Below, one piece after another: positions 37,738 through 64,000 of a stretch of DNA of 64,000 nucleotides. The stretch spans positions 124,001 to 188,000 of the forward strand of contig NZ_FXBM01000003.1 of assembly GCF_900177245.1 (NCBI RefSeq), read 5' to 3'. The notes beneath the pieces are model-generated. The model saw only the letters and a program-made list of their open reading frames with translations. It was not told the origin of the DNA and did no database searches. Made by a program: the position numbers and the translations under genes. Origin of the DNA: Rathayibacter oskolensis. Lineage in GTDB: Bacteria > Actinomycetota > Actinomycetes > Actinomycetales > Microbacteriaceae. Numbering within the stretch: position 1 is the stretch's first letter; each line of letters begins with the position of its first letter.

Positions 37738-38769
37738 GTGCAGGTCACCCCCGCCATCTGGCTGATCACCATCGCCGTGACGATCGCCTTCTTCGTCTAC
37801 GAGTTCTTCGCTCACGTGCGCAAGCCCCACGAACCGACCATCGGTGAATCCGCTCGCTGGTCGGCGTTCTACATCGGTCTCGCGCTGCTCTTCGGCGTCG
37901 GGATCGGTCTCGTCTCCGACTGGCGCTACGGCGGCGAGTACTTCGCCGGCTACCTCACCGAGAAGGCGCTGTCGCTCGACAACCTGTTCATCTTCCTCAT
38001 CATCATGAGCGGCTTCGCGGTGCCGAAGAAGTACCAGCAGAAGGTGCTGATGATCGGCATCGTCATCGCCCTGGTCATGCGCGGCGCCTTCATTGCCGTC
38101 GGCGCGGCGCTGATCGAGAACTTCTCGTGGGTCTTCTACCTGTTCGGCGCGCTGCTCTTCGTCCTCGCGTACCAGCAGATCAAGGGCGACCACGGCGATC
38201 CGTCGAACAACGCCTTCATGCGCCTCGTGCGCCGCGTCCTCCCCGTCACCGACGAGTACCACGGCGACAGGCTCACCGTGAAGAAGGACGGCCGCCGCTT
38301 CGTCACTCCGATGCTGCTGACCATCGTCGCCATCGGCTTCATCGACCTGGTCTTCGCGCTCGACTCGATCCCGGCCATCTACGGACTGACCAACGAGGCC
38401 TACATCGTCTTCACCGCCAACGCCTTCGCCCTCATGGGGCTGCGCCAGCTGTTCTTCCTCATCGGCGGCCTCCTCGAGCGCCTCGTCTACCTCAGCCAGG
38501 GCCTGGCCGTGATCCTCGGCTTCATCGCCGTCAAGCTCGTGCTCCACGCCCTGCACGTCAACGAGGTCCCCTTCATCAACGGCGGCGAGCCGCTGCTGTG
38601 GGTGCCCGAGATCCCGATCTGGTTCTCGCTGACCTTCATCGGGGCGACGATCGCGGTCGCGACGACCGCGAGCCTCCTGAAGACCCGCGGCGACCGCGGC
38701 AGGTCCGACCGCGCCACGGTCGAGGGCGAGCCGATCGAGACGGCGGCGGAGTCGCGCTCGGACGCGTAG
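37738..38769 (+). CDS. TerC-family integral membrane protein, probable Mn2+ exporter
   Basis: The 343-aa membrane protein has about eight or nine helices. The TerC-family motifs are EKALSLDNLFIFLIIM (near residue 80) and IDLVFALDSIPAIYGLT (near residue 203), whose acidic residues sit within the membrane and are thought to bind metal. GTG at 37738 is preceded by TTGGAG with seven bases spacing. The riboswitch in its leader supports a role in manganese efflux, as for other TerC proteins with this leader. Confidence 0.93.
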   Translation: MQVTPAIWLITIAVTIAFFVYEFFAHVRKPHEPTIGESARWSAFYIGLALLFGVGIGLVSDWRYGGEYFAGYLTEKALSLDNLFIFLIIMSGFAVPKKYQQKVLMIGIVIALVMRGAFIAVGAALIENFSWVFYLFGALLFVLAYQQIKGDHGDPSNNAFMRLVRRVLPVTDEYHGDRLTVKKDGRRFVTPMLLTIVAIGFIDLVFALDSIPAIYGLTNEAYIVFTANAFALMGLRQLFFLIGGLLERLVYLSQGLAVILGFIAVKLVLHALHVNEVPFINGGEPLLWVPEIPIWFSLTFIGATIAVATTASLLKTRGDRGRSDRATVEGEPIETAAESRSDA

Positions 38770-38780
38770 TCCGCCCGCCC

Positions 38781-38902
38781 GTTGATCGAGTAGCCCGCGC
38801 AGCGGGCGTGCCGAGATCCACCAGCATCGGAAGGCCGAGTCAGAAGGCCGATCCACGGAAGCTGGCGGGTCTCGATACGCCCGTGCGGGCTACTCGACCA
38901 GC
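38781..38902. repeat. Large imperfect palindrome after terC-family gene
   Basis: The left arm (38781-38819, containing GATCGAGTAGCCCGCGCAGC) and the right arm (38868-38902, containing GTGCGGGCTACTCGACC) are imperfect inverted copies. Inner bases CCAGC/GCTGG extend the stem. The element is about 120 bp, lies between genes, and looks like a mobile or dispersed palindrome. A short match, TAGCCCGCGCAGCG, is at 13325-13338 over the RidA-like stop codon. Confidence 0.7.
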
Positions 38903-38994
38903 AGGCTTCTCAGTCGAACTCAGCGGCGGAGGATCTCGTCGCCGGCTCGTGTTGCGGACATGTCCCCAGTGAGCCCCCCTTGATTGGAGAAATC

Positions 38995-39662
38995 TTGAGC
39001 AAGGACATCCAGACCCTCATCTCCAAGGTCGCCCCGCGCATCACCCAGGAGCCGGAAGCGTTCCTGGCCGCTCTCGCGGTCAGCGAGGAAGCCTCTCGCA
39101 GCGGCAGAGGTCGTGCGCGCCGCCTCCGGCGTCTCGGCGTGACGGTGGGAGCAGCAATGCTCATCGCCGCCGGCGGCACGGCCGCAGCGGCCGCAGTGAC
39201 GCAGTCGCTGCGGTGGCAGGCGCCGCAGTGACGCAGTCGCTGCGGTGGCAGGCGCCGAACAGTGTGGTGGCCGAAGCGGTCGACGCGACCGGTGCGGCCG
39301 GCCGAGCCGTCTCGGTGACGTTCATCCCGTCAGCCGTCTACGCTCCCGGTGTCGACGCAGCGACGCCAGGAGCCACCGAGGCGTTCCAGATCGCGCAGCA
39401 GTGGCTCACCGAGCACGCCTTCACCCTTCCGGTTCCCTCGGACGCGCAGACGCTCAGCGACGACCGCGCCGTGGAACTCGACGAGGCAGGGTCGCCGCCG
39501 AGGGTCGCGCTCGAACAGCAGGCGATCGCGGCGACCTCTTCCGGACTCTCCAGCGCGATCGGTGAGGGTCTGCCCGAGCTCGAAGCAGACCTCGCCGCCT
39601 ACCTCGCCGACCAGGAGATCGGCCCGTCGCTGATCGTCATCGAGGTCAGCTCGGGCGTGTAA
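38995..39662 (+). pseudogene. Membrane protein gene frameshifted by a 32-bp tandem duplication
   Basis: The frame starts at TTG 38995 (GGAGA upstream). It encodes a cytoplasmic segment (SKDIQTLISKVAP...), a basic stretch and one membrane helix (about residues 52-70), then reaches TGA at 39229-39231 inside the second copy of a 32-bp repeat. The other frame continues from the repeat (QSLRWQAPNSVV) to TAA at 39660-39662. Removing one repeat copy gives 636 nt, exactly 212 codons, i.e. an intact 211-aa protein. The topology resembles an anti-sigma or sensor protein, and a sigma-factor gene starts 12 bp downstream. As read it is broken; the duplication may be reversible. Confidence 0.85.
39191..39254 (+). 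repeat. 32-bp exact tandem duplication causing a frameshift
   Basis: Bases 39191-39222 and 39223-39254 are identical (each starts CCGCAGTGACGCAG and ends GGTGGCAGGCG). Because 32 is not a multiple of three, reading frame shifts at the junction. It is the only such exact duplication I noticed within a gene in the window. Confidence 0.95.
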
Positions 39663-39673
39663 GAGGTTCAGCA

Positions 39674-40219
39674 GTGACGCCCGAGTCCGATGCGTCCGAG
39701 CGGATGCGTGCCGCGTTCGAAGCGAACGCGATCGATCTGCTCGCCTACCTCGAACGGCGCATCGAACCCCGCACCGCAGCCGCGGACGTCCTCGGCGACG
39801 CGGTGGAGGTCGCGTGGAAGAAGGTCCGAGCCCTGCCCCGAGAACCGGAGCAGGCGAGGATGTGGCTGTTCACCGTCGCGAAGAACACTCTCGCGAATCA
39901 TCGGCGCGGGCTCGGCCGGCACCGCGCCGCCGTCGAGAAGCTCCGTGAAGTGCTGATCGTCGACCAGGCAGCGCACGGCGCCGACGATGTCGATCAGGCG
40001 GAGACTCGGATGATCGTGCAGCGCGCACTGGCATCACTGCGCCCGCAGGACGCAGAGCTGGTGCGGTTGGTCCACTGGGACGGATTCGCCCTCGCCGAAG
40101 TCGCAGCACTCGAGAGCCTGCCTGCGTCGACGGTCCGCTCCCGGTACGCGGTCGTGCTGCGGCACCTCGAGACCGTGCTCACCGCCGACTCCGAGAGGAC
40201 AGCCCCCCACGATGCCTGA
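39674..40219 (+). CDS. ECF-like RNA polymerase sigma factor
   Basis: The 181-aa protein has a sigma-70 region 2 (DVLGDAVEVAWKKVRALP, then ARMWLFTVAKNTLANHRRG, residues about 37-78) and a region 4 helix-turn-helix (LRPQDAELVRLVHWDGFALAEVAALESLPASTVRSRY, about 120-160). GTG start at 39674 with AAGAGG upstream. It follows the frameshifted membrane-protein gene by 12 bp, so the two form one unit. If that partner normally restrains the sigma factor, the duplication could leave it uncontrolled. Confidence 0.9.
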   Translation: MTPESDASERMRAAFEANAIDLLAYLERRIEPRTAAADVLGDAVEVAWKKVRALPREPEQARMWLFTVAKNTLANHRRGLGRHRAAVEKLREVLIVDQAAHGADDVDQAETRMIVQRALASLRPQDAELVRLVHWDGFALAEVAALESLPASTVRSRYAVVLRHLETVLTADSERTAPHDA

Positions 40220-40369
40220 GCCGAGGATCCGCACCCCCGGCACCCTCGGCCTCATGACCCAGCTCCAGGTGAGCGCCTGACATCGCCCCAGGCGGTGGAG
40301 CGGTTTCCACCGAGCGCGCCACGACGCGCCGGCGGGAGGCCCCGGCCGGCGCGACGCGGTGTCGGTGAC

Positions 40370-40999
40370 CTACTCGAACAGGGAGAGCGTCACGACGGAG
40401 GAGTAGTCGCCGGGCTCCACGTCGGGCTCCGTCTTGAGCGTGAGATCGGCGTCAGCGGTCCACGAGCCCTCGGGGTTCACGGCCTGCGAGTCCACGGCGA
40501 GGGCCAGGAGCTCCTGGTCGACGAGGCCGACCGCGTTCGGTCCGGAGTCGAGGACGGTGTCGACCTGGTCCCCTTCTGCGACGAGGCCCGAGGCGCCGCC
40601 GTCGATCAGGTGGGGCGTCCAGCCGAGGTGGTCCGCTCCGATCGAGGGCTGTCCGGAGTCGCCGGTGAACTCGGTCGTGGAGCCGAGCACGTACCAGCCG
40701 GCACCCTGAGGGATCTCGTCCGGGGCGCGGGTGTCGGTGATCGTGACGGTCGGCAGGGATCCTGTGAACCGGCGGACGGTCGGGGTGGAGCCGTTCTCGG
40801 TCAGGATGGCCGAGCTCCCCGCGACGGACATGGCGAGTACGCCGGGTGTCTCGATGGCGGGGATCGAGACGCTGACGTCGACGTCGTCGCTGCCGCGCTC
40901 GGTGTCGGCCGAGGCCGTGGCGGCGGCGACGGTGGTGAGGAGCAGTCCTCCGATCACTGCGGCCGCCGTGCGGCCCAGGAGAGCGGATGTGCATCGCAT
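40370..40999 (-). CDS. Secreted protein, WxL-domain-like
   Basis: The 209-aa protein has a signal peptide (MRCTSALLGRTAAAVIGGLLLTTVAAATASA, cleavage near residue 31). A beta-rich domain follows, ending in PGDYSSVVTLSLFE. Such C-termini are found in WxL-like surface proteins of actinobacteria that bind cell wall or associate with other surface proteins. It lies downstream of the secreted glycosidase gene but beyond a strong hairpin, so it may be transcribed separately or at lower level. The 150 bp between it and the sigma gene hold only hairpin-prone GC-rich sequence. Confidence 0.75.
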   Translation of the reverse strand: MRCTSALLGRTAAAVIGGLLLTTVAAATASADTERGSDDVDVSVSIPAIETPGVLAMSVAGSSAILTENGSTPTVRRFTGSLPTVTITDTRAPDEIPQGAGWYVLGSTTEFTGDSGQPSIGADHLGWTPHLIDGGASGLVAEGDQVDTVLDSGPNAVGLVDQELLALAVDSQAVNPEGSWTADADLTLKTEPDVEPGDYSSVVTLSLFE

Positions 41000-63199: not shown

Positions 63200-64000
63200 T
63201 CAGCCCTTCAGGTGCTTCTCACGTCCTCGGCGCTGGGCGAGCATCAGGAGTGCAGCACCGCCGAGCAGGACGAGCATCGCGACCGATGCCGTCACGGCCA
63301 TCGACGTGCCGTCGGTGCCCGTCGAGGCGAGTCCGACCTGGGGTCCCTGCGGTCCCCGGGGTCCGGCGACGGGGACCGTCGTCGAGTCGGAGGCGGAGGG
63401 TCGCGGTCCGGCCACCGGCGGCACGGCCGTCGGCGTGCTGGTCGGCGTCACCGTCGGGGTGACCGTCGGGGTCGGCGTGGCCGTCGGCGTCACCGTCGGG
63501 GTGACCGTCGGAGTCGGCGTAGCCGTCGGGGTGACCGTCGGAGTCGGCGTAGCCGTCGGCGTCACCGTGGGCGTCGGCGTGACCGTCGGAGTCCCCGTCG
63601 GCGTGACCGTCGGCGTCGGCGTGACCGTCGGAGTCACCGTCGGCGTCACCGTCGGGGTGACCGTCGGGGTGACCGTCGGAGTCGGCGTGACCGTCGGCGT
63701 CGGCGTGGGCGTCACGGTCGGAGTCGGCGTGGGACTCGGCGTCACGGTCGGAGTCGGCGTCGGCGTCACCGTCGGTGTGACGGTCGGAGTCGGCGTCGGG
63801 GTCACCGTCGGTGTGCCCGTCGGTGTGACGGTCGGAGTCGGCGTCGGGGTCACCGTGGGCGTGACCGTCGGGGTCACCGTGGGCGTGACCGTCGGGGTCA
63901 CCGTGGGCGTGACCGTCGGGGTCACCGTGGGCGTCACCGTCGGAGTCACAGTAGGCGTCACCGTCGGGGTCACCGTGGGCGTCACCGTCGGAGTCACAGT
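63200..64000 (-). CDS. Cell-wall-anchored protein with Thr-Pro-Val repeats (C-terminal part)
   Basis: Only the C-terminal part lies in the window. It consists of about 185 residues of TVTP-type repeats, a linker ([12 protein letters not shown]) and a sortase signal. That signal is LASTG, a hydrophobic helix [21 protein letters not shown] and a basic tail [10 protein letters not shown]. LAxTG motifs are recognised by class E sortases common in high-GC actinobacteria. The repeats would form an extended stalk that lifts an N-terminal domain (outside the window) off the cell wall. No sortase gene is in the window. Confidence 0.88.
63430..64000. repeat. Tandem repeat coding for Thr-Val-Thr-Pro units
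   Basis: Bases up to the window edge are built from repeats of about 6 and 12 bp (GTCACCGTCGGG and variants GTGACCGTCGGC), coding for TPTV and TPTP units. Runs of identical units at 63655-63680 and 63855-64000 could misalign during replication, so stalk length may vary between strains. The array continues beyond the window. Confidence 0.9.

What the first reader, a model, noticed from the sequence alone, without database searches (positions are those of the whole stretch)
38995..39662. 32-bp tandem duplication switches off a putative partner of an adjacent sigma factor
Bases 39191-39222 and 39223-39254 are identical. The duplication breaks the frame of a one-helix membrane protein gene, and removing one copy restores exactly 212 codons. 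The gene lies 12 bp upstream of an ECF-like sigma factor and has the topology of an anti-sigma factor or signal sensor. Such duplications can be lost again at high rate, so this may be an ON/OFF contingency switch, or a recent loss-of-function that frees the sigma factor. That the protein controls the sigma factor is inference.
Basis: partly seen in the sequence, partly recalled or inferred. Interest (0 to 1): 0.75.

Follow-up and report, generated by a model that had tools for sequence, protein, structure and literature searches.

The report
Duplication-split partner of a sigma factor
In an actinobacterium, a 32-base tandem duplication has cut in two the gene of a membrane protein that probably restrains the gene switch encoded next to it, most likely an ordinary loss-of-function mutation in a widespread but unstudied pair of regulators.

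Summary
In detail: 39191-39222 and 39223-39254 are identical. The gene is split into an N piece (cytoplasmic part and membrane helix) and an out-of-frame C piece (ectodomain). The neighbour is an ECF sigma factor. The pair belongs to an uncharacterised Microbacteriaceae family: 90 of 92 evaluable related loci carry the same order with one uninterrupted partner gene, and 81 of the 92 have a shared promoter-like motif that the window keeps in weaker form. The nearest relative, L078, is itself frame-broken near the same place by a different lesion without a repeat; so is L079. None of the 92 carries this duplication, so a conserved ON/OFF switch is not supported; recent loss of function is. That the partner is an anti-sigma factor is inferred from anatomy (an intact relative is modelled with two N-terminal helices, as in class II anti-sigmas). 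The lesion removes the sensor domain but leaves the presumed sigma-binding part, so the sigma may be freed (as after cnrY or mucA lesions) or locked. Small duplications in anti-sigma genes are known (PMC4803752).

The parts
38932..38977 (+). promoter-like motif shared by the family (core GACATGT 38957-38963)
   Evidence: Profile from 40 relatives, window and L078 left out of training: score 14.1, above the highest of the reversed and shuffled controls (10.7) and the best site on both strands of the 64-kb window (next 12.8), but only 73rd of 93 regions; 82 of 93 regions exceed the controls, the 40 training regions among the 93. No sigma-70-type promoter in 38760-40420, where shuffles give 0.1 on average, so that says little.
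38995..39231 (+). N piece of the split partner gene: cytoplasmic part and membrane helix, 78 aa from TTG 38995, ends at TGA 39229-39231
   Evidence: matches the profile of 79 intact relatives, E 4.5e-9; two helices before the membrane segment are inferred from the model of relative L080
39139..39195 (+). predicted membrane helix of the N piece
   Evidence: hydropathy 1.69 over 19 residues
39191..39222 (+). first copy of the 32-base tandem duplication
39223..39254 (+). second copy of the 32-base tandem duplication
39228..39662 (+). C piece of the split partner gene: ectodomain, now in another frame and without a membrane helix; GTG 39228 overlaps the N stop
   Evidence: 41% identical (60 of 146) to the L078 C piece, E 6e-27 in a two-sequence comparison; modelled (mean pLDDT 76.5, first 30 residues under 60) with a strand/helix order like the relative's ectodomain
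39674..40219 (+). ECF sigma factor, 181 aa, intact
   Evidence: Pfam Sigma70_r2 1.1e-5 and Sigma70_r4_2 3.7e-7, both above gathering; 63% identical to L078; keeps 25 of 28 columns that are at least 90% conserved
37738..38769 (+). upstream flank: terC-family gene, not part of the system; conserved in relatives while the sequence after it is not
   Evidence: in 13 of 13 close loci compared, similarity ends at or just after terC apart from a short repeat element in three

Best explanation
A two-gene operon, [one-helix membrane partner]-[ECF sigma], of a family widespread in Microbacteriaceae and probably read from its own sigma's promoter, has suffered a recent 32-base tandem duplication (short-homology or slippage type, 4 bases of extra identity). 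It splits the partner gene just after the membrane helix. Shown: the duplication, the split, homology of the N piece to the family and of both pieces to the nearest relative, the intact sigma, and a promoter-like motif. Inferred: the partner is a membrane anti-sigma factor/sensor of class II (CnrY-like) anatomy; the split removes its sensor domain; the sigma is thereby uncoupled from its signal, somewhat more likely left active than permanently held. It is an ordinary loss-of-function lesion, not a conserved switch.
For: Exact duplication and frame change. Sigma domains. 90 of 92 evaluable related loci have one uninterrupted partner gene in the same place and order. N pieces of window, L078 and L079 match the intact-family profile (4.5e-9, 3.8e-7, 3.7e-14). 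Window C piece vs L078 C piece 41%, 6e-27. Relative L080 is modelled with two N-terminal helices (3-13, 22-36) before the membrane segment and an ectodomain mostly above pLDDT 90. Class II anti-sigma CnrY embraces sigma2 and sigma4 with two helices (PMC7406223 and PMC4598750, passages). Precedents: a 5-bp duplication in cnrY went with 6-fold cnrH and about 18-fold cnrCBAT expression (PMC4803752, passages); stop mutations of mucA lie 84-100% in the periplasmic coding region (PMC2781719, section 7).
Against: No binding or activity test. No Pfam or NCBIfam family covers the partner. The C pieces of window (i-E 16) and L078 (0.075) do not match the intact-family profile significantly; the best unrelated row among the 482 sequences searched had E 0.0042, better than both. 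They also lack the cysteines that all 90 intact partners have (seen), so this subfamily differs. In the L080 model the membrane segment is poorly predicted (pLDDT 46-56 over residues 41-70). The N piece keeps the presumed sigma-binding part, so loss of function is not certain. Assembly error not excluded.
Confidence: 0.6

Rival explanations
1. Reversible contingency switch: the two-copy repeat is gained and lost at high rate and turns the partner off and on.
For: Tandem copies of 32 bases with 36 positions of identity can recombine (general knowledge); three broken alleles lie near the same border.
Against: None of 92 relatives has the duplication; the nearest relative L078 has no tandem repeat. 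Only two copies, no repeat array.
Confidence: 0.08
2. Super-repressor or truncated-but-working anti-sigma: the N piece, like the small CnrY (size recalled), still holds the sigma, but the sensor is gone, so the sigma is locked off. Rho-dependent polarity over the untranslated stretch could lower the sigma further.
For: N piece retains the whole part that matches the family profile before the ectodomain, including both helices inferred from the relative's model.
Against: mucA truncations in the periplasmic part are those found in mucoid isolates (PMC2781719); the sigma gene has kept an intact frame.
Confidence: 0.22
3. Sequencing or assembly artefact in the window.
For: Single record, no reads; the L078 and L079 breaks could be one-base errors.
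Against: An exact 32-base tandem duplication is a typical real mutation and short enough to be spanned by ordinary reads (general knowledge).
Confidence: 0.1
4. Programmed frameshifting: the ectodomain is normally made by a frame shift, since window and L078 share the same frame relation.
For: The C frame is offset from the N frame by the same phase in window and L078.
Against: The same phase is expected by chance in one of two cases; L079 has the other phase; 90 relatives need no shift; I saw no classical slippery heptamer by eye (no search was run).
Confidence: 0.03

Closest known systems
CnrY-CnrH (class II anti-sigma with ECF sigma, Cupriavidus metallidurans)
   Same: Anti-sigma gene before the sigma gene (operon written cnrYXHCBAT in PMC4803752); cytoplasmic part with two helices; a frameshift by a small duplication is known and goes with derepression
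   Different: Here an ectodomain of about 75-180 residues follows the membrane helix in the same protein and no separate CnrX gene lies between partner and sigma; no sequence match to a solved anti-sigma; binding untested; Actinobacteria
MucA-AlgU (mucA22 and other truncations)
   Same: A frame break beyond the membrane helix removes extracytoplasmic sequence of a one-helix regulator
   Different: MucA is encoded after its sigma and has a class I domain (both recalled); the main mucA lesion is a one-base deletion in a G run, not a 32-base duplication
CU044_5270 family proteins (NCBIfam NF038083)
   Same: Weak similarity: window N piece residues 24-70, E 0.14; 3 of 28 relatives, best 0.011
   Different: Far below the curated cut-off (11.9 vs 100 bits); not a member by that test
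Unnamed pair on plasmid pCP of Clavibacter phaseoli (NZ_CP040787.1)
   Different: Partner gene intact; sigma 42.8% identical to the window's over 76% of its length

Membership tests
ECF sigma factor | sigma region 2 and region 4 domains, no region 3 | tested here: met
   Pfam r2 15-82 and r4_2 113-163 in 181 aa, above gathering, no region 3 hit; TIGR02937 55.7 bits, above its cut-off of 42.9
Class II (CnrY-like) anti-sigma factor | short cytoplasmic domain of two helices before a single membrane helix | tested here: inconclusive
   model of intact relative L080: helices 3-13 and 22-36 (pLDDT 90 falling to 66), membrane segment at pLDDT 46-56. The window N piece aligns to the family profile but was not modelled itself
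Class II (CnrY-like) anti-sigma factor | the two helices bind sigma2 and sigma4 and inhibit the sigma | not testable with these tools
   no complex prediction or binding assay
Class II (CnrY-like) anti-sigma factor | sequence similarity to CnrY or another solved anti-sigma | tested here: inconclusive
   profile A1 against PDB sequences up to E 1: 2 unrelated rows, best 0.59
Class I anti-sigma factor (zf-HC2, RskA and similar Pfam families) | match to a curated anti-sigma domain | tested here: not met
   no such Pfam family among the hits of the window pieces or of 28 relatives; 1 of 28 relatives hit NCBIfam 'antisigma' NF052375 at 0.011
Phase-variable (contingency) locus | repeat retained at the same place in relatives | tested here: not met
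   0 of 92 relatives with this or any out-of-frame exact tandem duplication of unit 8-79; L078 none by TRF. Strains of the same species not available
Phase-variable (contingency) locus | both states present in one population | not testable with these tools
   no reads

The most novel reading that the evidence does not exclude
In this branch of the family the partner gene is repeatedly broken at one spot, the border between membrane helix and ectodomain, by different lesions, while the sigma gene and promoter-like motif stay: a mutational hot spot by which lineages uncouple the sigma from its sensor, possibly reversibly in the tandem-repeat allele.
Probability: 0.12. Interest if true: 0.6.

Novelty: new member of a known kind. 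Interest (0 to 1): 0.38.

Why it matters
It points to a large family of membrane partner-ECF sigma pairs in Microbacteriaceae whose partner has no curated family, with a shared promoter-like motif that could make regulons predictable. It also gives natural truncation alleles in which the sensor is removed but the presumed sigma-binding part stays. If the parallel breaks are real mutations, they are natural experiments on what the ectodomain does.

Tried and rejected
Duplication conserved in relatives: rejected for the 92 loci judged. Programmed frameshift: not supported (L079 has the other phase). L005 first looked broken; inspection shows a sigma without this partner gene, so it is not counted. 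Clade enrichment of breaks: the first tree put window, L078 and L079 in one clade of 7 (support 0.955). After more loci were added (11 intact, 1 at a locus edge) the enclosing clade is 13 with support 0.775 and inner nodes of 0.762 and 0.603; leaving out the window, 2 of 12 inside against 0 of 80 outside (hand-computed hypergeometric 0.016). The clade was picked after the fact, so this is weak.

Rows dropped before the census: of 85 sigma hits (81 passed the intact rule), L045 (partner not of the family), L103_632 (same gene as L105_1947), L105_3292 (locus edge) and L005 (no partner) were left out, giving 79 intact and 2 broken. Of 12 hits, L152_3258 (edge) was left out, giving 11 intact. The distant sigmas among L046-L056 did not reach the E-value limit (L053 did and is counted). 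L003 and L004 repeat L002 and L001. One listed sigma hit (G368) was not fetched.

Full report
Observation. Tandem Repeats Finder gives 39190-39257, period 32, 100%, and a direct comparison shows 36 matched positions at that period, 4 more than the unit. Of six exact head-to-tail duplications with units of 10-200 bases in the window, it is the only one whose unit is not divisible by three. Both pieces have coding-like GC by codon position; block by block the C phase is clear after the duplication (6 of 7 blocks), the N phase before it is not (1 of 3). The N frame (TTG 38995, with GGAG before it; the ORF tool starts at 38980) stops at TGA 39229-39231 inside the second copy; the C frame runs to 39662, and a GTG at 39228 overlaps that stop.

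The neighbour. The gene at 39674-40219 has both ECF sigma domains above Pfam's thresholds. It keeps 25 of 28 columns that are at least 90% conserved in its family, so it looks functional.

The partner family. The pieces match no Pfam or NCBIfam model above cut-off. Relatives found through the sigma (more loci fetched) nearly all carry, directly before the sigma gene, one gene for a protein of about 140-250 residues with one membrane helix. After dropping the rows named under Tried and rejected, 92 loci could be judged: 90 uninterrupted, 2 broken (L078, L079). All 90 intact ectodomains have 2 (88) or 4 (2) cysteines; in an alignment of 28 of them the first cysteine is invariant and the last at least 90% conserved. 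A profile of 79 intact partners finds the N pieces of window, L078 and L079 (4.5e-9, 3.8e-7, 3.7e-14) and the C piece of L079 (3e-7), but not the C pieces of the window (i-E 16) or L078 (0.075); the best unrelated row had 0.0042. Those two C pieces match each other (41%, 6e-27 in a two-sequence comparison) and lack the cysteines, so window and L078 form a diverged subfamily; their sigmas are sisters with support 1.0. The model of the window C piece has a similar order of strands and helices to the relative's ectodomain, but the alignment used contained relatives, so this is not independent.

Breaks in relatives. In L078 (63% identical sigma) the N and C pieces also lie in different frames, meeting near the end of the membrane helix, without any tandem repeat. 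In L079 the same holds with the other phase. These look like one-base-scale changes and may be mutations or sequencing errors; I could not tell. Three different lesions near one border is suggestive, but the rate outside the window is 2 of 92 and the clade statistic is weak.

Promoter. Many relatives share a two-part motif before the partner gene: exact GACATGT in 39 of 82 upstream stretches of 190 bases (35 of them as GGACATGT; the other 4 lie close to the gene start), against 46 occurrences on the same strand in all 292,266 bases of those loci. A profile trained on 40 relatives scores 82 of 93 regions (window included) above all reversed and shuffled controls; the 40 training regions are among the 93. 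The window (14.1, 73rd of 93) and L078 (23.7), both left out of training, also pass, and the window's site at 38932-38977 is its best in 64 kb (next 12.8). No sigma-70-type promoter was found, but chance would give 0.1. Autoregulation by the ECF sigma is inferred.

How it may work. An intact relative is modelled with two helices in its cytoplasmic part, then a poorly predicted membrane segment, then the ectodomain. That resembles class II anti-sigma factors, whose two helices hold sigma2 and sigma4 (PMC7406223, PMC4598750; passages seen). Partner = anti-sigma/sensor is therefore likely but untested. The duplication removes the sensor and leaves the presumed holding part. Precedents point to release: a strain with a 5-bp duplication in cnrY derepressed the cnr genes (PMC4803752; passages), and mucA stop mutations lie 84-100% in the periplasmic coding part (PMC2781719; section 7 read). 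A locked state remains possible because the N piece is complete.

Host. Window GC is 71%. The terC gene before the locus is 95% identical to that of G302. G359, of the same genus, carries a 150,009-base contig that is 98.8% identical over the 3,471 bases compared to a Rathayibacter festucae plasmid; the same stretch is 93% identical to a Clavibacter plasmid, so such DNA moves between genera, and two further attempts to name the genus found nothing. The genus is therefore probably, not surely, Rathayibacter, which includes a listed species; that species' GC is lower (both recalled), so the window is probably not it. In 13 of 13 close loci compared, similarity ends at or just after terC apart from a short repeat element, so the operon sits at a variable place. 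The 15 held species of that genus show no closely similar copy, though six related pairs in five of them (L037, L039, L040, L041, L043, L053) are intact.

Verdict. A real, ordinary lesion in a member of an uncharacterised but common regulator pair. The contingency-switch reading is not supported by relatives; loss of function is.

Noticed in passing
window 38777-38906: Inverted repeat (22-nt arms, 86% complementary, 86 nt apart) between terC and the operon; L008 and L011 of the same genus have GGGCTACTCGA in both orientations about 100 bases apart next to terC (2 of 161 loci). Looks like a dispersed palindromic element.
   Followed up: partly
upstream of 81 of 92 related loci, e.g. L080, L082, L101, L107: Conserved two-part motif, about tggACGttt-N10-CGGACATGTac-N-gggTga, before the partner-sigma operons: a candidate promoter code for the whole ECF group.
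   Followed up: yes
L119; L053 with L040; L103 with L105: Some genomes carry two such partner-sigma pairs in tandem or within 3 kb.
   Followed up: no
L162 1791-2956 (Clavibacter phaseoli plasmid pCP): A pair of the family lies on a plasmid, partner annotated as hypothetical protein, stop and start overlapping by 4 bases.
   Followed up: partly
window 63441-63997: Long degenerate array of a 12-base unit (GTCGGCGTCACC) at the window's end.
   Followed up: no
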